Below, piece by piece: positions 32,731-61,266 of a stretch of 64,000 nucleotides of DNA (position 1 is its first letter; every line of letters begins with the position of its first letter). The position numbers were made by a program, and so were the translations under genes. The notes beneath the pieces are model-generated. The model had not been told where the DNA came from. It saw only the letters and a list, made by a program, of their open reading frames with translations, and did no database searches. The stretch comes from Streptomyces taklimakanensis (GTDB taxonomy: Bacteria > Actinomycetota > Actinomycetes > Streptomycetales > Streptomycetaceae): contig NZ_WIXO01000001.1 of NCBI RefSeq assembly GCF_009709575.1, forward strand, positions 4,032,001-4,096,000. Direction: 5' to 3'.

Positions 32731-33492
32731 TCAGCCGAGCAGCGTGCCCCCGCTGGCGTCGACGAAGGAGCCGGTGATCCAGCGCGCGTCGTCGGAGGCG
32801 AGGAAGGCCACCACGTCGGCGACGTCCTGGGGGTCGCCGACCCGGTTGAAGGTCGACAGCGCCGCCATCTGCTCCACCGCCTCGGGGATGTCGAACAGCG
32901 GGTTCCCGTTGCGGGTGATGCCCGGCGCCACGCTGTTGATCGTGATGTTCCGCGGGCCCAGGTGCTTGGCGTAGTGCAGCGCGAGCATCTCCACGGCGCC
33001 CTTGGTCATCGCGTAGGCGATCTCGTCCGGGTTGGCGAACTTCGTGAGTCCGGAGGAGATGTTGACGATGCGGCCGCCGCTGGGCATGTTCGGCAGGGCG
33101 CGCTGGATGATGAAGAACGGCGCCTTGGCGTTGACCGCGAAGAGCCGGTCGAACTGCTCCGGCGTGGTGTCCTCGGGCTTGACCCCGCCCATCACGCCGG
33201 CGTTGTTCACCAGGATGTCCAACCGGGTCGTGCCGGTCCGCTCCTTCAGCCCCTCCTCCAGGCCGAGGAAGAGCTGGTGCACGTCGCCGGGCACGCCCAG
33301 CTCGGCCCGGACGGCGAAGGCCCGGCCGCCGTCCTTCTCGATGGTGGCCACGACCTCGGCCGCCGCCTCCTCGCCGGTCGCGTAGTGCACGGCGACGAGC
33401 GCTCCCTCGCGGGCCAGGCGCATGGCCGTCGCCCGGCCTATGCCCCGGCTGGAACCCGTGACGAGGGCCGTCTTGCCGGTCAGGTTTCCCAT
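32731..33492 (-). CDS. Possible separately translated SDR domain (internal start)
   Basis: ATG 33492 (MGNLTGKTALVTG) lies inside the oxygenase-SDR gene, in frame, with AGGAGAGA 5-7 bases upstream, exactly at the domain boundary. It would give a 253-residue standalone reductase. In the PgaM family an internally started reductase copurifying with the full-length protein has been described. Here only the sequence signals are seen. Confidence 0.55.
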   Translation of the reverse strand: MGNLTGKTALVTGSSRGIGRATAMRLAREGALVAVHYATGEEAAAEVVATIEKDGGRAFAVRAELGVPGDVHQLFLGLEEGLKERTGTTRLDILVNNAGVMGGVKPEDTTPEQFDRLFAVNAKAPFFIIQRALPNMPSGGRIVNISSGLTKFANPDEIAYAMTKGAVEMLALHYAKHLGPRNITINSVAPGITRNGNPLFDIPEAVEQMAALSTFNRVGDPQDVADVVAFLASDDARWITGSFVDASGGTLLG

Positions 33493-34995
33493 GCTCTCTC
33501 TCCTGATCCTGTTGATGTCGTGCGCCGCCCGGGACCCGAACCAGCGGCGGAGGGCTTCGGTGAGACCGGCCGTCGGCGCGGTGGTTTCGGACCCGACCCA
33601 GGCGACGTGGCCGTCGGGGCGTACGAGAACGGCGTGCGAGCCCGCGAGCGGTCCGTCCGCCACGGCCGCGGCCACGGTGGCGTCCACCGCGTGCGCCCAG
33701 GGCCGGGCCACCGCGAGCGTCTCCGTGCGCAGGGCGGGGTCGTCGGTGAGCACCAGCAGGACACCGCGGGCCGCGCGCAGCAGCGTCGGGGTGCTCAGGG
33801 GGCCGTGCGGGCCCGCCAGTTCGACGTGAGGCAGACGGGTTCCCGTCAGGGGATGCCCGTCCCCGGCGCCGTAGCGGATGTCCAGGCCGCTCACCACCCC
33901 GGCCAGGTGTCGGCGCACGTCCTCGTACGGGATCAGCTCGCCGAACACCGCGCGCAGCGATTCCACCTCGGGGCTGCCGAGCAGCAGGAGGGCCTGTGCC
34001 CGGATGGTGGACAGGACCCGTTCGCCGACCGGGTGGCGTTCGTCGTGGTAGGTGTCGAGCAGCTCCTCCGGGGCGGTCCCGCGGACCCGAAGGGCCAGTT
34101 TCCAACCGAGGTTGACGGCGTCCTGCAGGCCGAGGTTGAGGGCCTGGCCGCCGATGGGCATCTGCTGGTGGGCGGCGTCCCCGGCCAACAGCACCCGGCC
34201 GTCGCGGTACCGCGACGCCTGGCGGGAGGCGTCGCCGAAGGAGTTGATCCACAGCGGAGTCCCCGCGCCGATGTCCTCGCCGGTGACGCGCCGCCACACC
34301 TCGGTCAGCTCCGCGAAGGAGGGTTCCTCGGCGCGCGGCCGCGCGGCGCGGCCGAACTCGTGCACCATCACCCGGGTCACGCCGTCGCCTCGGCGCGCGG
34401 CGATGGCCAGTCCCCGCTCCAGCCGCTGGAAGCGCCGGTCGGGGACGTCGATGCCGTCGACGTCGGCCCGGATCAGTTCGCGCCGCGCCGAGGTGCCGGG
34501 GAAGTCGAAGCCGGCCAGGCGGCGCACGGTGCTGTCCTCGCCGTCGCAGCCGACGACGTAGCGGGCCCGCAGCGCCACCGGTCCCGCGGGACCGAGGGCC
34601 TCGACCTCCACGTGGTCGGGGTGGCGGATCAGGGCCCGCACCTCGTGGCGGCGCCGGACGTCGGCCCCCAGCTCCAGGGCCCAAGCGCCCAGCAGCTCCT
34701 CGGTGCGCACCTGCGGGACCTTCCACTGGCCCGGGTACGGTCCGCCGAGCCGCAGGTCCAGCGGGACGCCGCCGAAGTGGCCCCTGACCTCGTTCGGCGG
34801 CGTCCCCAGCGCGTCGAGCAGTCCCCGCTGGTCCAGGATCTCCATGGTGCGGGCGTGCAGCGTCGACGCCCGGGACTCCGTGGTGGGGACGGCGCGCCGC
34901 TCCAGGACGATCACGTCGGCGCCGCCGAGCCGCAGCTCGCCGGCGAGCATGAGCCCGACCGGGCCGGCGCCGACCACGATGACGTGGGCGTCCAC
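32731..34995 (-). CDS. Fused FAD monooxygenase-SDR reductase (PgaM/UrdM type)
   Basis: This is a 754-residue bifunctional angucycline oxygenase-reductase. The flavin hydroxylase part (1-about 500) has [15 protein letters not shown], a DG motif (VVGCDGEDSTVRRLAG) and GD ([18 protein letters not shown]). The SDR part starts near 502 with ALVTGSSRGIGRA and has YAMTK near 661. PgaM, CabM and UrdM share this order and act at C12/C12b with ketoreduction at C6 in angucyclines. GTG 34995 is the fusion start. An internal ATG (33492) behind AGGAGA may yield free reductase. It starts 4 bases after the aromatase stop. Confidence 0.92.
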   Translation of the reverse strand: MDAHVIVVGAGPVGLMLAGELRLGGADVIVLERRAVPTTESRASTLHARTMEILDQRGLLDALGTPPNEVRGHFGGVPLDLRLGGPYPGQWKVPQVRTEELLGAWALELGADVRRRHEVRALIRHPDHVEVEALGPAGPVALRARYVVGCDGEDSTVRRLAGFDFPGTSARRELIRADVDGIDVPDRRFQRLERGLAIAARRGDGVTRVMVHEFGRAARPRAEEPSFAELTEVWRRVTGEDIGAGTPLWINSFGDASRQASRYRDGRVLLAGDAAHQQMPIGGQALNLGLQDAVNLGWKLALRVRGTAPEELLDTYHDERHPVGERVLSTIRAQALLLLGSPEVESLRAVFGELIPYEDVRRHLAGVVSGLDIRYGAGDGHPLTGTRLPHVELAGPHGPLSTPTLLRAARGVLLVLTDDPALRTETLAVARPWAHAVDATVAAAVADGPLAGSHAVLVRPDGHVAWVGSETTAPTAGLTEALRRWFGSRAAHDINRIRRESMGNLTGKTALVTGSSRGIGRATAMRLAREGALVAVHYATGEEAAAEVVATIEKDGGRAFAVRAELGVPGDVHQLFLGLEEGLKERTGTTRLDILVNNAGVMGGVKPEDTTPEQFDRLFAVNAKAPFFIIQRALPNMPSGGRIVNISSGLTKFANPDEIAYAMTKGAVEMLALHYAKHLGPRNITINSVAPGITRNGNPLFDIPEAVEQMAALSTFNRVGDPQDVADVVAFLASDDARWITGSFVDASGGTLLG
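33490..33506 (-). promoter_or_regulatory. Internal ribosome binding site at the oxygenase/SDR boundary
   Basis: On the minus strand ATCAGGAGAGAGAGC-ATG places a strong AGGAG about 8 bases before an in-frame methionine that begins the Rossmann strand of the SDR. Confidence 0.6.
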
Positions 34996-55270: not shown

Positions 55271-55468
55271 TCAACGCGGCGGTGTCGACCGCCTGGTGGA
55301 GGGGACGAGGGCCAAGAGCTCGTCCAGGTCGTACTCCGCGCGCTGCGGTCCGCCGTACCGGGTGATCTTTCCCCGGCTGGCCCACTTGCGGATGGTCGCC
55401 TCGCTCACCCCCATGGCCAGCGCCGCGAGTTCGGTCGGCACGGTCCGTCTTCTCGCCGTGGTGGTCAC
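55271..55468 (-). CDS. Small helix-turn-helix DNA-binding protein (OvmW-like)
   Basis: This 65-residue basic protein holds a MerR/excisionase-type winged helix (TVPTELAALAMGVSEATIRKWASRGKITRYGGPQRAEYDLDELLALV). GTG 55468 overlaps the stop of the zinc-ribbon-like gene before it (GTGA). Pairs of this kind are annotated OvmZ/OvmW in Streptomyces after the oviedomycin (angucyclinone) locus; that name is from memory. Likely acts jointly with its neighbour as a regulator. Confidence 0.8.
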   Translation of the reverse strand: MTTTARRRTVPTELAALAMGVSEATIRKWASRGKITRYGGPQRAEYDLDELLALVPSTRRSTPPR

Positions 55469-56193
55469 CGCGCCTCCCCGGTCGTCACCGGCCGGAGCCG
55501 ATCGGCGATCTCCAGCCACTGCCGGGGTGGAAGCCTGTGCCCCGACTCGCAGACGACGAGGCCGGGAGCGTGATCGTCGTCCACCGCGTGCAGGACGCCG
55601 CGCAGGGCCCCACCGCAGTCGGGGCGCGGGCAGTCGCCGAGCGCGAGATGGCGCGTGGGGTTCGGTTCGAGGGCCGAGGTGACGCACTCCAGCAGGTCGG
55701 CCATCTCCTCGTCGAAGTCGGCGGCGGCCGGGTGCGTGGCCAGCCAGTCGAGGTGCTCGCGGAGGAAGCGGACCAGGGTCGCGACCTCGGACGCGCCGGG
55801 TCCGAGCACTCCTCTCTCGTCGACGACCATGCGCGCCCAGGAGGCGAGGAGTTCCGTCGTCCGGGAGCGCGCGGACACCGCTCGGTCGTCGAGCACTATG
55901 CCCACCGACCGGCTGCCGCTGACGCGTTCCGCCGTCCGCGTCGGGGTGGGAGTCAGCGCGTGTTCGCTCTCCCGGTAGGCGTCGACCACTCCGCGCAGTT
56001 CGGAGTGGAGACGGTCGACGCAGGTCGGACACAACCGGGGACCCGACGGCCTCTCGTGGGAGGGCGGGCAGGCGCCGGTCCGGTTCCGGCGCTCGCAGCG
56101 CCGTGCGACGCATCCGGACACCGCGGTTCCGCCGCGTCCGGTCCCGTGCCGTCGGATGACGCGCGCGGTCGGACGTCCTCGCTGATGCCTCAT
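55465..56193 (-). CDS. OvmZ-like cysteine-containing protein
   Basis: This 242-residue protein has an N-terminal Cys cluster (GCVARRCERRNRTGACPPSHERPSGPRLCPTC, spaced like a zinc ribbon), a helical middle, and a second Cys set near the end (GDCPRPDCGG...LVVCESGHRL). It may bind zinc and partner with the downstream helix-turn-helix protein. ATG 56193 with GAGGGGGA upstream. Function unproven. Confidence 0.75.
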   Translation of the reverse strand: MRHQRGRPTARVIRRHGTGRGGTAVSGCVARRCERRNRTGACPPSHERPSGPRLCPTCVDRLHSELRGVVDAYRESEHALTPTPTRTAERVSGSRSVGIVLDDRAVSARSRTTELLASWARMVVDERGVLGPGASEVATLVRFLREHLDWLATHPAAADFDEEMADLLECVTSALEPNPTRHLALGDCPRPDCGGALRGVLHAVDDDHAPGLVVCESGHRLPPRQWLEIADRLRPVTTGEAR

Positions 56194-56517: not shown

Positions 56518-56535
56518 ACATACCGTTCGACCGGT
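56518..56535. promoter_or_regulatory. Operator copy 1 (ACATACCG-type) upstream of the OvmZ-like gene
   Basis: ACATACCGTTCGACCGGT differs by one base from the complement of the site at 60314-60331. Together with 56712-56730 it defines a shared regulator motif. Confidence 0.65.
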
Positions 56536-56670
56536 AGCTGTTTTCTCTCGGGGGTCCCGGCTAAACGGACGATGACCCTCCATTGACCGTTCCCGCAGGT
56601 GGCCCCCTTTAGGCGCTTGTTAAGCGGCTGTGAGCTGCTTGTGACGGAGCTTTTTCCCAGGTGAATCCCT

Positions 56671-56730
56671 TTGAGCATCGCTCGTACAGCTGTATGGTGA
56701 GGAGCCTAAAGATACCGATCGACCAGTTTT
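56671..56730 (+). promoter_or_regulatory. Promoter plus operator copy 2 of the JadR1-like regulator gene
   Basis: -35 TTGAGC (56671-56676) and -10 TATGGT (56693-56698). ATACCGATCGACCAGTTTT follows at 56712-56730, just downstream of the expected transcription start, where a bound repressor would block elongation. Its complement matches 60312-60329 at 17 of 18 bases. Confidence 0.7.
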
Positions 56731-56781
56731 CTCTGGTGTTCGCTGGGTGACGGTGGGCACCGCCCAGGGAGGTTCGGGCCC

Positions 56782-57549
56782 GTGAGGATATTGATCGTCG
56801 ATAGTGATGACAGGACCGCCGAGTACCTTGAGGGAACCCTCGTCGTCCACGGTTTCGAGACCTGCCGGGTCGGCACCGGGGCGGCGGCGCTGGAACGCTT
56901 CGCGGGGGCGGGGTTGGTGCTGGTGGCGCTGGACCTCCCCGACCTCGCCGGCAGCGAGGTCTGCCGTCTCATCCGTGAGAGATCCTGCGTTCCGATCATC
57001 GCGCTGAGCGGCAGCGCCGAGGAGGTGGACCGGGTGATGGCCCTGCACATGGGGGCGGACGACTTCATGATGAAGCCGTTCGGCAGGTACGAGCTGGTGG
57101 CCAGGGTCAAGGCGCTTTTCCGACGCAGTGCGGGGTGTACCCGGGGCTGCACCGACCTGGGGTCGTCCGAGAACCGGTCGCTCTCCCCGTCCGAGACGCT
57201 GGAGCACGGGGCGGTGGAGCACGGGGAGCGGTCCGGGGCCGGCACGGTGCGGGAGGCGGGACCGCTGCGGTTGGATCCCCACGCGCGCAAGGTCTACCTG
57301 CGCGGAAAGGAACTGCACGTGACCCGCAAGGAGTTCGATCTCCTGGCGATGCTGTTGGAAGGACCCGGCACGGTGCGGAAGCGACAGGAGATCATGTGCA
57401 GGGTGTGGGACGAGAACTGGATCGGCTCCAGCCGTACCCTCGACTTCCACGTCGGTTCCCTGCGGAGCAAGCTCGGCTGCGCGGGATGGATAGAGACCGT
57501 TCGCGGAGTCGGTTTCCGGCTGGCCGTACCGGAGTTGCCGGTCGCTTGA
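56782..57549 (+). CDS. Atypical OmpR-type response regulator (JadR1-like cluster activator)
   Basis: This 255-residue regulator starts at GTG 56782 (GGGAGG upstream). The receiver keeps D51 (VALDLPDLAG) and K98 (MMKPFG), but the acidic pair is D7-S8 instead of D-D, and no kinase gene adjoins. JadR1, LanI and LndI of angucycline clusters are atypical receivers of this kind that respond to end products rather than phosphorylation. The winged helix is complete (VTRKEFDLLAMLLEGPGTV...TLDFHVGSLRSKLG). Likely pathway-specific activator. Confidence 0.9.
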   Translation: MRILIVDSDDRTAEYLEGTLVVHGFETCRVGTGAAALERFAGAGLVLVALDLPDLAGSEVCRLIRERSCVPIIALSGSAEEVDRVMALHMGADDFMMKPFGRYELVARVKALFRRSAGCTRGCTDLGSSENRSLSPSETLEHGAVEHGERSGAGTVREAGPLRLDPHARKVYLRGKELHVTRKEFDLLAMLLEGPGTVRKRQEIMCRVWDENWIGSSRTLDFHVGSLRSKLGCAGWIETVRGVGFRLAVPELPVA

Positions 57550-57611
57550 CGGACGGAGGGCGGGAGGTCCCCGGAGCCGGACGGAGGTGCGACGTGTTCG
57601 CGAAGGGTGGA

Positions 57612-57656
57612 CGCGCCGATGCCGGGCGGAGAGGTTCTCCGCCCGGCATCGGCGCG
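57612..57656. terminator. Bidirectional terminator between the regulator and AfsA-like genes
   Basis: A perfect 21-bp stem (arms 57612-57632 and 57636-57656, loop ggt) lies between the convergent genes. Confidence 0.88.
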
Positions 57657-57677
57657 TTGGCGGGGGATCCGTCGGTT

Positions 57678-58622
57678 TCACCGCCCGTCCAGGACGGTGA
57701 CCCGGCAGGAGCCCGCGACACTTCCGTTCTGGTGGAACGACGCGGTCAGTGTCCAGGCGCCCGCCGCGCCCTCCGTCGGTTCGGTCACCGACACCAGGCA
57801 GGGCGTGTCGAACTCCACGTACCGGTGGAAGGTGGCCGAGCAGGCGACGAGCAGGCCGTTCGGGAGGCGCAGCGCGATCAGCGCGGCCTGGCGCGCCGCT
57901 TCCATCAGGGCCATGCCGGGGACGTGGTCCACGGGGTGGTCGAAGAGCACCGGGTGGGTGGCGTCGGCGCGCAGGACGTGCGTTCCCTCCACCGAGGAGG
58001 TCCCCAGGACCACGTCGGATTCACGGCTCCTGCCGACGAGGGCCGGGGGGGCCGCCTGCGGCAACGTCAGCGGCGGCCTGGCGTCCGCGTGGTCGCCGCG
58101 CAGTCGGCGGTAGACATGGGGGGCGACGCAGTCGACGGTGGTGTGACCGCTCCCGATGCGCACCCCGGCGCGGTGGGCGGTCACGTCGTAGGCGAAGGAG
58201 GAGACGTGCACACCGCGGCAGCGGATGTCGCGAAGGGTGACGTCCAGGAGGACGTCGGCCGGTCGGTCGACGAGTCGGACCCCTTCCTCGGAGATCTCGA
58301 ACGATGCGCTTCCGACGAGGAAACGGTGGTCCATCGGGACGCCGAGGGCGTGGTGGGCGAGGAACAGGCCCGCCTGGCGGATCGACTCGGCGAACAGCAT
58401 CGGGTCGTGCCAGCGTCCGTCGATCGCGCCGTAGTAGCTGTGTCCCCGTGCCCACTGGGTTCCGACCGTGTGGACGTCCCGGCCCCGGGGAGCGGCGCCC
58501 GTCAGCAGGACTTCCGACACGGCCGACCGGTGGACCAGGGCACGGGGTACGGTCTGCTCGAAGAACTCCGGGTCGGTCGCCCTCCGCGGAGTCCCTCTCT
58601 CGATCTGTGCTGGTGCGCTCAT
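57678..58622 (-). CDS. AfsA/ScbA-family gamma-butyrolactone synthase-like protein
   Basis: This 314-residue protein carries two A-factor hotdog repeats (VHRSAVSEVLLTGAAPRGRDVHTVGTQWARGHSYYG; FDHPVDHVPGMALMEAARQAALIAL). AfsA-type enzymes condense a beta-keto acyl group with dihydroxyacetone phosphate to form a butyrolactone or related signal. It is divergent from the ArpA/ScbR-like receptor gene, the standard signal-receptor arrangement. ATG 58622 has GGGGAG upstream. Confidence 0.93.
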   Translation of the reverse strand: MSAPAQIERGTPRRATDPEFFEQTVPRALVHRSAVSEVLLTGAAPRGRDVHTVGTQWARGHSYYGAIDGRWHDPMLFAESIRQAGLFLAHHALGVPMDHRFLVGSASFEISEEGVRLVDRPADVLLDVTLRDIRCRGVHVSSFAYDVTAHRAGVRIGSGHTTVDCVAPHVYRRLRGDHADARPPLTLPQAAPPALVGRSRESDVVLGTSSVEGTHVLRADATHPVLFDHPVDHVPGMALMEAARQAALIALRLPNGLLVACSATFHRYVEFDTPCLVSVTEPTEGAAGAWTLTASFHQNGSVAGSCRVTVLDGR

Positions 58623-58742
58623 CTCTGTTCTCCCCTCGCACGTGGATCGGTCTCTCGGACGTGGACAGGCCCGGGCGGCCGTGGGGGGAACCGGGCAGGC
58701 GGCGGAACGGAACTCTGAGTTGCGCGGCGCGGTTTCGGTAGA

Positions 58743-58760
58743 GTACTAGCCGGCTGGTAT
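58743..58760. promoter_or_regulatory. Autoregulator-response-element-like palindrome
   Basis: GTACTAGCCGGCTGGTAT: the central AGCCGGCT is a perfect palindrome, flanked by TAC and GTA, in the gap between the divergent AfsA-like and receptor genes. ArpA/ScbR-type proteins bind such elements. Confidence 0.7.
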
Positions 58761-58863
58761 TTTTTCCACGGATTCAAAAGGGCTCGGGTTCGATGCTTTC
58801 CGTGGTGATCGCCGGTAAGGGCGGAATATAGGAATCCACATCACGGCAGGCAAGGAGGCCGAG

Positions 58864-59523
58864 ATGACAAAGGCAAGACAAGAGCGCGCGGAGATCACCA
58901 GGCAGGCGATCCTCGACGGGGCGGCAAACGCTTTCGGCGAGGCGGGATTCGGCAGTACCAGCCTGAGTGACGTGGTGGAAAAAGCCGGTGTGACAAAAGG
59001 GGCGCTCTACTTCCACTTCCCGTCCAAGGAAGCGCTGGCGCGCACGTTGATCGACGAGCAGTTCGCCGCTTCCGGACTTCTGGGAGGGGTCGAGCGGCTC
59101 GGCATGCAGACGGCCGTCGACCTCACGCACCGGGTGGCGTACGGTCTGCGGACCAACGCGCGGGTCCGGGCCGGGATACGGCTCGTGATCGAGTTCGGCT
59201 CCTTCACCGACCCGGATCCGTCCCCCTACAACAGGTGGATCGAGACCGTCCGGGACTGCCTGGTGGGCGCCCGCACCCTCGGGGACCTGAACCCCGAGGT
59301 CGACGTCACCGACGTCGCCACCTTCGTCGTCGGTTCCTTCACCGGCATCCAGCTCACCTCGCACGTCCGCACCGGACGCGAGGACATCCACGACCGCATC
59401 ACCGACATGTGGAGTTTCCTGCTGCCGGGGATCGTGCCGGCCGATCGGGTCGCCCGGTTCGATCCGGCCGGCTCCGCCCGAATACGGGCGGAACTCGGCC
59501 TCGCCGCCGCCGCCGCCGACTGA
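58864..59523 (+). CDS. ArpA/ScbR-like gamma-butyrolactone receptor (TetR family)
   Basis: This 219-residue repressor has an ArpA-type helix-turn-helix (RQERAEITRQAILDGAANAFGEAGFGSTSLSDVVEKAGVTKGALYFHFPSKEALA) and the receptor-type ligand domain (RVRAGIRLVIEFGSF). AAGGAGG precedes ATG 58864. Divergent from the AfsA-like gene with the response element between them, so both genes are probably its targets. Confidence 0.92.
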   Translation: MTKARQERAEITRQAILDGAANAFGEAGFGSTSLSDVVEKAGVTKGALYFHFPSKEALARTLIDEQFAASGLLGGVERLGMQTAVDLTHRVAYGLRTNARVRAGIRLVIEFGSFTDPDPSPYNRWIETVRDCLVGARTLGDLNPEVDVTDVATFVVGSFTGIQLTSHVRTGREDIHDRITDMWSFLLPGIVPADRVARFDPAGSARIRAELGLAAAAAD

Positions 59524-59572
59524 CGGCGGCCGCGCCCGTGGCGGGGCGGGGACGGCCGGTGCCGCTCTGCCC

Positions 59573-60172
59573 TCAGGCCCGCTGCTCGGGCACGAGCATG
59601 GGGAGGGCCAGGTCCCAGAGGTGGTCGAGCCACTCCTCGCCCTCGTCCTCGGAGGCTCCCATCCAGGCGAGGGCCTCGGTGCCCGACACGGCCGCGGTGA
59701 CGAGCGTCTGTGCCGAGGCGTCCGTCACGGTGTGCCGCAGCTCGCCGTTGGTGCGGGCTTCCTCCAGCAGCTTCCACAGCCGGCCGAACCACACGGTGTA
59801 GAAGTCGAGCGGCTTCGGTTCCGTACCGCCGCGTTCCCGGGTGATGCGGACGCTGGCCCGCACGAACACGTCCTCGCGCAGCAGCCGGTTGAGCGCGTGC
59901 GTCGCCCTGACGATCACCCGGAGGGACGAGTCCTCGGCCGACCGCAGCTCCCGCAGGGTCCGCTCCAGGGCACCCCAGGCGTGCTCCTGCACGGTGTCGG
60001 CCAGTTCGTCCTTGGTGGAGAAATGGAAGAAGAGGGCCCCTTTGGTGAGGCCGGCGTGCCGGCTGATGCCCGCCAGTGAAGCCTGGCCGAAACCGTGGTG
60101 GGTGAATTGTTCCGCGGCGGCTTCGACCAACCGCTCCAGAGTGCGTTCGGAACGCTTCTGCCTGCCTACCAC
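59573..60172 (-). CDS. Second TetR/pseudo-receptor-like regulator
   Basis: This 199-residue protein also has an ArpA-type DNA-binding domain (RTLERLVEAAAEQFTHHGFGQASLAGISRHAGLTKGALFFHFSTKDELAD). Its C-terminal domain diverges from true receptors, as in ScbR2/JadR2-like pseudo-receptors that sense antibiotics. The start is GTG 60172, with GGGGG upstream. It is convergent with the receptor gene. Operator copy 3 lies 135-160 bases upstream of its start, suggesting autoregulation. Confidence 0.88.
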   Translation of the reverse strand: MVGRQKRSERTLERLVEAAAEQFTHHGFGQASLAGISRHAGLTKGALFFHFSTKDELADTVQEHAWGALERTLRELRSAEDSSLRVIVRATHALNRLLREDVFVRASVRITRERGGTEPKPLDFYTVWFGRLWKLLEEARTNGELRHTVTDASAQTLVTAAVSGTEALAWMGASEDEGEEWLDHLWDLALPMLVPEQRA

Positions 60173-60305
60173 GATCGCCCCCGAGAACCGGAGGCCACCG
60201 ACCGGCCGTGCGTGCTGACATCTGGAGCGGGCACTTTTCCTCCTCGGTGACTCCTGGTGGGGGCGGAGTTGTTCACCGGGCCGGAGAATCCGACCGTATA
60301 CGAGA

Positions 60306-60331
60306 ACATACAAACCGGTCGATCGGTATGT
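60306..60331. promoter_or_regulatory. Operator copy 3, upstream of the second TetR gene
   Basis: Terminal inverted ACATAC (60306-60311) and GTATGT (60326-60331) flank CCGGTCGATCGG. The segment 60312-60329 repeats the operator at 56712-56730 with one mismatch. It looks like a butyrolactone-receptor-family site. Confidence 0.75.
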
Positions 60332-60420
60332 CAAGACGGAATATCGCCACCGAAGCGACCACCGTCCGGTGGCGTCCGGTGGTGTTCGGCGCTTCGGTGG
60401 CGGGCGCCGCGGGGACGCGT

Positions 60421-60543: not shown

Positions 60544-61266
60544 TCACCACGTCACGTTGCCGTTGCCGCCGTCGAAGACGACGTCGGAGCAGGAGTAGAA
60601 GTTCTCCTGGCTGTCGGAGCGGATCCAGTGGATGTAGACGATGTGCTGACCGGAACGCTGCGGCAGTCGGACGTCCCAGTAGTAGTGGCCGGATTCGGAA
60701 CCGACGCTGCCGGACTGCGGCGGGTTGGTGACGCTGTTGATCTTCTCCAGGTCACCCCAGGCCAGCGACTTGGTCGGGGACCAACCCTGCTTGGTGATGT
60801 AGACGTCGAACCGGCCGGGGTGGTGCGCCCAGTTGCTGTGCTTGATCCGGATGTTGGCGCCGGAGGTCAGGTGCGTCTTGGGCCAGTCGGTCCGGGCGGC
60901 GTTGTAGGCGGAGAAGTCGAACGGGCCCCGGTTGCCGCCGCTGCACAGCGTGCCGTCGGGGATGTAGCCCGTGGTGCGCCCGCCGCCGTTGGAGTCGAGC
61001 ACGGCGAACCAGTTGTACAGCCCGGTGGTGCCGTCCTGCCGGACGGCGTCGGCGCAGGCCGGGTTGGACGGCATCTGGTGGCCGTTCCTGACCAGGTCCT
61101 GGTAGCAGAAGTAGGTGCGCGAGCCGGGGAACATGGTGGCGCCGTGCGCCGCCGCGGGGGTGGGGATGGAGGCCATGACGAGGGCGGACAGCGCCGCGCC
61201 CATGACCGCTAAGAAACGGGACGAGCGGACCGGCGAGGTGCGCCGGCCGGTTTTCCGAATGGCCAT
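60544..61266 (-). CDS. AA10 lytic polysaccharide monooxygenase
   Basis: This 240-residue secreted copper enzyme oxidatively cleaves crystalline polysaccharide. The signal peptide ends AAA|H, making H41 the N-terminal copper ligand; the second ligand is in NWAHHPG (H148/H149), and the axial aromatic is in NFYSCSDVVF. The HGATMFPGSRTYFCYQD start resembles cellulose-active members more than chitin-active ones. There is no carbohydrate-binding module. A CebR-type box overlaps its promoter, consistent with cellulose. Confidence 0.94.
   Translation of the reverse strand: MAIRKTGRRTSPVRSSRFLAVMGAALSALVMASIPTPAAAHGATMFPGSRTYFCYQDLVRNGHQMPSNPACADAVRQDGTTGLYNWFAVLDSNGGGRTTGYIPDGTLCSGGNRGPFDFSAYNAARTDWPKTHLTSGANIRIKHSNWAHHPGRFDVYITKQGWSPTKSLAWGDLEKINSVTNPPQSGSVGSESGHYYWDVRLPQRSGQHIVYIHWIRSDSQENFYSCSDVVFDGGNGNVTW

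What the first reader, a model, noticed from the sequence alone, without database searches (positions are those of the whole stretch)
56518..60331. A shared 18-bp operator occurs three times in the regulatory end of the cluster
ACATACCGATCGACCGGT-like sites occur at 56518-56535, 56712-56730 and (complementary) 60312-60331, with one to two mismatches among them. They sit before the OvmZ-like, JadR1-like and second TetR genes. One regulator, probably the TetR at 59573-60172 or the ArpA-like receptor, would control all three.
Basis: seen in the sequence. Interest (0 to 1): 0.72.

Follow-up and report, generated by a model that had tools for sequence, protein, structure and literature searches.

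The report
Quorum-signal operators in an angucycline cluster

Summary
Three related sites lie at 56518-56539, 56710-56731 and 60310-60331. A weight matrix built only from other species ranks these three first, second and third in the 64 kb. Only they match the core exactly in the 6.1-Mb genome. They are autoregulatory elements (AREs), the operators of ScbR-family receptors, in the regulatory end of an angucycline-type cluster. An AfsA-type signal synthase and two ScbR-family regulators lie next to them. Site 3 fills the 18-bp spacer of a TTGACA/TATGTT promoter of the second TetR gene; five species share this layout. Site 2 sits just downstream of the probable JadR1-like promoter and is kept in relatives. 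Site 1 is not conserved and its link to the OvmZ-like gene is weak. 'One regulator' is only partly right: both TetR proteins probably bind. The layout resembles SagR/Aur1R of auricin and JadR3/JadR2 of jadomycin: a new member of a known kind.

The parts
56518..56539 (+). ARE site 1 (ACATACCGTTCGACCGGTAGCT), in the OvmZ-like/JadR1-like intergenic region
   Evidence: (24.9 bits, rank 3); no counterpart at this position in relatives
56710..56731 (+). ARE site 2 (AGATACCGATCGACCAGTTTTC), 72 bp upstream of the JadR1-like start, just downstream of a candidate -10 box
   Evidence: (29.6 bits, rank 2); counterpart in L049, L067, L163, L153 and weaker in L048, L050
60310..60331 (-). ARE site 3 (ACATACCGATCGACCGGTTTGT), inside the promoter spacer of the second TetR gene
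   Evidence: (30.9 bits, rank 1); same layout in L048, L050, L173, L174
58738..58767 (+). Fourth, divergent ARE-like element GTAGAGTACTAGCCGGCTGGTATTTTTTCC between AfsA and receptor genes, about 100 bp upstream of the receptor start
   Evidence: aligned block conserved in 7 of 7 loci; rank 5 in the independent matrix scan; pattern found in 9 of 394 genomes, always beside receptor/AfsA homologues
60305..60334 (-). Sigma-70-type promoter TTGACA-18-TATGTT of the second TetR gene, enclosing site 3
   Evidence: 2 promoter-like sites found in the region, 0.2 expected
56671..56698 (+). Candidate promoter TTGAGC-16-TATGGT of the JadR1-like gene
   Evidence: 8 of 12 consensus positions; aligns with promoter blocks of relatives; weak on its own
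55271..55468 (-). OvmW-like short ORF (65 aa, helix-turn-helix-like), overlapping the end of the OvmZ-like gene
   Evidence: translation; no Pfam hit; named by position and by the published description of OvmW
55465..56193 (-). OvmZ-like gene
   Evidence: conserved ORF in L049, L050, L067, L163 at 47-54% identity; no Pfam or NCBIfam hit
56782..57549 (+). JadR1-like OmpR-type response regulator with Ala at the usual phospho-acceptor position
   Evidence: PF00072 + PF00486; alignment, residue 49
57678..58622 (-). AfsA/ScbA-type signal synthase gene
   Evidence: PF03756; NF041195 ScbA/BarX at 324 bits, cut-off 200
58864..59523 (+). ScbR-family regulator 1, candidate signal receptor
   Evidence: NF041196 at 200.6 bits, cut-off 150; closest solved structures AvaR1 and a GBL receptor
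59573..60172 (-). ScbR-family regulator 2, candidate pseudo-receptor
   Evidence: NF041196 at 181.8 bits, cut-off 150; separate clade with 98/98 support

Best explanation
The sites are autoregulatory elements (AREs), the palindromic operators of ScbR/ArpA-type TetR regulators, and they wire a local quorum-type circuit for an angucycline-type type II polyketide cluster. Without signal, dimers of the ScbR-family proteins (the receptor at 58864-59523 and the second regulator at 59573-60172) sit on site 3 inside the promoter of the second TetR gene, on site 2 just downstream of the JadR1-like promoter, probably on site 1, and on the divergent fourth site between the synthase and receptor genes. 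This blocks RNA polymerase. A butyrolactone- or butenolide-type signal made with the AfsA-type enzyme releases the receptor, so the JadR1-like activator is made and turns on the biosynthetic genes. The second regulator is made as well and closes the same promoters again until the product or an intermediate releases it. Shown here: the sites, their uniqueness, their conservation and their position relative to promoters and genes. Inferred from characterised relatives: protein binding, which protein binds which site, repression, and the ligands.
For: Independent matrix puts the three sites first to third; exact core only here in 6.1 Mb. Both TetR proteins are over the ScbR-family cut-off and the synthase over the ScbA/BarX cut-off. 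JadR1-like loci from other Streptomyces with a ScbR-type gene nearby all have an ARE in the 400 bp upstream of the regulator gene (9 of 9, score at least 12); those without one nearby have none (0 of 10, all 11 or less). Site 3 layout (-35, ARE, -10 with 18-bp spacing) recurs in L048, L050, L173 and L174, and 13 of 14 genus-wide matches to that pattern lie within about 1.5 kb of ScbR, AfsA or JadR1-like homologues. Fourth element: 9 of 9 genus-wide matches next to receptor or AfsA homologues. CprB base contacts K43, G44, Y47, F48 (PMC4150764) are all present in regulator 1 and three of four in regulator 2, Y to F. Footprints of SfbR and SfbR2 fall on the same AREs, consensus AAACVGNNBVNNCSGTTT (PMC7480387); site 3 fits it with 1 mismatch and site 2 with 2. 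Precedents: SagR/Aur1R at aur1P (PMC8910723) and JadR2 at jadR1 (PMC6930871).
Against: No binding or expression data. Site 1 is not conserved and has no convincing promoter beside it. Relatives L049, L067 and L163 have no ARE at the second TetR gene. The published SfbR consensus is too loose to be significant at 3 mismatches (80 found, 79 expected), so site 1 is not supported by that consensus. The isoelectric points (5.62 and 5.93) do not separate receptor from pseudo-receptor.
Confidence: 0.9

Rival explanations
1. Only the second regulator (59573-60172), a JadR2/Aur1R-like pseudo-receptor, uses sites 1-3, while the receptor uses only the divergent fourth site at its own promoter.
For: The two site types differ: ACCG/CGGT half-sites at sites 1-3 against ACTAG/CTGGT at the fourth. 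The fourth element tracks the receptor and synthase genes in 9 of 9 matches. JadR2 represses jadR1 directly.
Against: SfbR/SfbR2 footprints are identical, and ScbR2 binds all ScbR targets. SagR and Aur1R both bind aur1Pp. The recognition helices are nearly identical.
Confidence: 0.2
2. Site 1 is a non-functional leftover or a displaced copy; only sites 2, 3 and the fourth are operators.
For: No counterpart in relatives; tandem AREs in relatives sit next to each other at the JadR1-like promoter. Flanks of sites 1 and 2 share GCCTA and GTTTTCTCT, but the shared flanks are not significant once the ARE is masked.
Against: It still scores 24.9 bits, far above random, and has 8 of 11 symmetric pairs.
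Confidence: 0.35
3. The sites are operators of a TetR regulator encoded elsewhere in the genome, for example at the two other AfsA/ScbR loci on contig C2 or at C1:670 kb.
For: The genome encodes three further ScbR-family proteins, and cross-talk between ScbR-type proteins is known.
Against: No ARE of this type (score 12 or more) lies at those loci; these sites are found only beside the in-cluster pair.
Confidence: 0.05
4. Chance resemblance of palindromes in high-GC DNA.
For: Loose consensus patterns do match at chance frequency.
Against: Expected 0.03 matches against 4; blind matrix ranking; conservation across species and gene-linked occurrence.
Confidence: 0.01

Closest known systems
SagA-SagR / Aur1R / aur1P network of the auricin cluster (Streptomyces lavendulae CCM 3239)
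   Same: AfsA-type synthase, receptor and pseudo-receptor of the ScbR family; both bind the promoter of a JadR1-type regulator gene (PMC8910723, PMC10933834).
   Different: In auricin the co-activator aur1O follows aur1P in one operon; here a short OvmZ/OvmW-like pair is divergent from the regulator gene. Order and spacing of sites differ; auricin operator sequences were not compared here.
JadR3/JadR2 - jadR1 of jadomycin (Streptomyces venezuelae)
   Same: Receptor plus pseudo-receptor control a gene for an atypical response regulator; JadR2 represses jadR1 directly (PMC6930871).
AlpZ/AlpW of kinamycin (Streptomyces ambofaciens)
   Same: Receptor and pseudo-receptor acting at AREs in an angucycline-derived cluster (PMC7343708).
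   Different: The target there is the SARP gene alpV, not a JadR1-like regulator.
SfbR/SfbR2 of Streptomyces filipinensis
   Same: Two ScbR-family proteins footprint the same AREs with an 18-nt core; AREs overlap -10 or -35 boxes (PMC7480387).
   Different: That system has no ARE in its target biosynthetic cluster and acts indirectly.

Membership tests
Autoregulatory element (ARE) | Palindromic operator of about 18-22 bp fitting the ScbR-family consensus | tested here: met
   Dyad symmetry; SfbR consensus with 1, 2 and 3 mismatches at sites 3, 2 and 1; the third is not significant by itself
Autoregulatory element (ARE) | Located in promoters of receptor, synthase and pathway regulator genes | tested here: met
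   site 1 uncertain
Autoregulatory element (ARE) | Bound by an ScbR/ArpA-type protein and released by its ligand | not testable with these tools
   Needs gel shift or footprint
ScbR-family autoregulator receptor (58864-59523) | NCBIfam NF041196 above cut-off | tested here: met
   200.6 bits, cut-off 150
ScbR-family autoregulator receptor (58864-59523) | Conserved ligand-pocket tryptophan and CprB-type DNA contacts | tested here: met
   Trp125 invariant and TKGALYFHF helix identical to CprB
ScbR-family autoregulator receptor (58864-59523) | Binds a butyrolactone or butenolide | not testable with these tools
   No ligand data
Pseudo-receptor (59573-60172) | ScbR-family protein outside the genuine receptor clade | tested here: met
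   Separate clade, 98/98 support; but only four characterised proteins were in the tree, none a proven pseudo-receptor
Pseudo-receptor (59573-60172) | Basic isoelectric point | tested here: not met
   pI 5.93; published exceptions exist, e.g. ScbR2 at 5.85. I therefore call it a candidate pseudo-receptor only
ScbA/AfsA signal synthase | NCBIfam NF041195 above cut-off | tested here: met
   324.3 bits, cut-off 200
JadR1-type atypical response regulator | OmpR-type receiver plus winged helix, phosphorylation residues missing, no partner kinase gene | tested here: met
   PF00072 + PF00486; Ala49 at the acceptor position and Ser8 in the acidic pocket; next gene is AfsA, no kinase. Several relatives keep the Asp
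OvmZ/OvmW pair | OvmZ-like protein followed by a 60-80 aa helix-turn-helix OvmW | tested here: inconclusive

The most novel reading that the evidence does not exclude
A family of angucycline-type regulators has moved from histidine-kinase control to quorum-signal control: JadR1-like regulators with a partner kinase gene lack AREs, while those linked to a receptor pair have AREs and, in several lineages including this one, have lost the phosphorylation site.
Probability: 0.3. Interest if true: 0.5.

Novelty: new member of a known kind. Interest (0 to 1): 0.33.

Why it matters
It gives a concrete, testable wiring map for switching on this angucycline-type cluster: removing the two TetR genes, or mutating sites 2 and 3, should raise the JadR1-like activator. 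The comparative result (operator present in 9 of 9 receptor-linked loci, absent in 10 of 10 unlinked) suggests that the operator predicts which JadR1-like regulators are under quorum-type control.

Tried and rejected
First alignment of JadR1-like proteins was wrong because two loci were on the other strand; redone. Local duplication as origin of site 1: shared flanks, but not significant with the ARE masked (that masked test also counted N-N as matches and is weak). Isoelectric point as a receptor/pseudo-receptor test: uninformative. Published SfbR consensus at 3 mismatches: chance level. My motif search for downstream histidine kinases found none even where the annotation shows one, so I rely on the annotation, not on that script. 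Fetching a named plasmid with labelled receptors by a remembered accession failed. The JadR1-like tree did not resolve whether ARE-linked regulators are one clade. Near-matches elsewhere in the genome were inspected: one is inside a gene, others are intergenic next to unrelated genes. The 23221 near-match (18.9 bits) lies inside a coding ORF and is within the range of random maxima.

Full report
What is in the sequence. The true unit is a 22-bp imperfect palindrome, ACATACCGATCGACCGGTTTGT in its best form.

Is it more than chance? Two sites match the third at 18 of 22 positions; 0.0012 such sites are expected in 64 kb. To avoid circularity I built a weight matrix only from 14 sites found upstream of homologous genes in other Streptomyces. 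It ranks the window's three sites first, second and third (30.9, 29.6 and 24.9 bits); the best score in 30 random sequences of the same size and dinucleotide make-up was 19.3. In the whole 6.14-Mb genome, ATACCGWTCGACCRGT has three exact matches, these three; one-mismatch matches occur at three other places.

Surroundings. The window is in a Streptomyces-type genome (G000, C1:4032001-4096000; the genus is inferred from its relatives), and carries a type II polyketide cluster with ketosynthase, ketoreductase, FAD monooxygenases and SnoaL-like cyclases. At its end lie an OvmZ-like gene with a short OvmW-like ORF (55271-56193, -), a JadR1-like regulator (56782-57549, +), an AfsA/ScbA-type synthase (57678-58622, -), and two ScbR-family regulators (58864-59523, +; 59573-60172, -). 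The JadR1-like protein has Ala at the usual phospho-acceptor position.

Positions relative to promoters. Site 3 fills the spacer of TTGACA-18-TATGTT, the best promoter-like sequence of the region. The same layout with the same 18-bp spacing occurs at the homologous gene or its operon in L048, L050, L173 and L174. A genus-wide search for this nested pattern gave 14 matches in 12 of 394 genomes; 13 of them lie within about 1.5 kb of ScbR, AfsA or JadR1-like homologues. Site 2 lies about 12 bp downstream of a candidate -10 box of the JadR1-like gene and is aligned and nearly unchanged in L049, L067, L163 and L153, whose proteins are only 53-60% identical. Relatives often carry a second ARE about 34 bp upstream, inside the promoter spacer; in the window that copy is not recognisable. 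Site 1 is an extra site without counterpart.

A fourth site. Between the synthase and receptor genes a block with consensus TACTAGNNGACTGGTTTTTTTT is conserved in 7 of 7 loci, about 100 bp upstream of the receptor start; in the window it reads GTAGAGTACTAGCCGGCTGGTATTTTTTCC (58738-58767). A search of 394 genomes that ignored gene content found this pattern in nine, once each, with none for the reversed control; all nine lie next to a receptor or AfsA homologue.

Co-occurrence. I compared 19 JadR1-like loci. Nine have ScbR-type genes nearby (in one case about 18 kb away, G192) and all nine have an ARE scoring at least 12 within 400 bp upstream of the regulator gene. Ten have none nearby and none scores above 11. 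If loci were independent the probability would be about 1 in 92,000; they are not fully independent (L162 and L171 are near-identical). In three annotated unlinked loci the regulator gene is followed by a histidine kinase gene.

Which protein binds? The CprB residues that contact bases, K43, G44, Y47 and F48 (PMC4150764), are all present in regulator 1; regulator 2 has three and Phe for Tyr47. In S. filipinensis receptor and pseudo-receptor protect the same sites (PMC7480387), and ScbR2 can bind all ScbR targets (PMC4595836). So both are likely to bind. Regulator 2 and its homologues form a clade of their own, 98/98 support, apart from regulator 1 and the receptors AvaR1 and TylP (the name TylP for PDB 5xay is from memory). 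Its pI (5.93) does not fit the usual basic value of pseudo-receptors.

Mechanism. By analogy with SagR/Aur1R (PMC8910723, PMC10933834) and JadR3/JadR2 (PMC6930871), the pair represses the JadR1-like activator gene, the second TetR gene and the synthase/receptor genes until the signal accumulates; the second regulator then closes the circuit. Binding, repression and ligands are inferred.

Novelty. Every element has a precedent, so this is a new member of a known kind. The comparative pattern that quorum operators mark which JadR1-like regulators are under receptor control, with kinase genes beside some of the others, is the part that may be of wider use; direction and number of such switches are unresolved.

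Noticed in passing
60544-61266 (-): A cellulose-type lytic polysaccharide monooxygenase gene (PF03067) directly follows the regulatory end of the cluster.
   Followed up: no
L059 (G000:C2:1-14000) and L060 (G000:C1:662000-680000): Two further AfsA plus ScbR-family loci in the same genome, one near the end of a 166-kb contig; neither carries this ARE type at score 12 or more.
   Followed up: partly
L058:6825 (G000:C1:3090824): A near-perfect palindrome ACATACCGACCGGTCGGT about 80 bp upstream of an ORF that looks like an acyl-CoA ligase; probably the operator of an unrelated TetR protein.
   Followed up: partly
L170, L171, L172: Plasmid-borne type II polyketide or related clusters whose JadR1-like regulator is followed by a histidine kinase gene and has no ARE.
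   Followed up: partly
L048, L173, L174: In these relatives the ARE-controlled promoter lies about 600-700 bp upstream of the second TetR gene with room for an extra ORF in between (in L048 it resembles a cobalamin-binding domain, by eye only), and carries two AREs 26 bp apart.
   Followed up: no
32734-34995 (-): A fused FAD monooxygenase and short-chain dehydrogenase ORF, as in some angucycline clusters.
   Followed up: no
L056 (G192:C1): The JadR1-like ORF matches in two pieces (residues 1-128 and 159-250), with the linker region not aligned.
   Followed up: no
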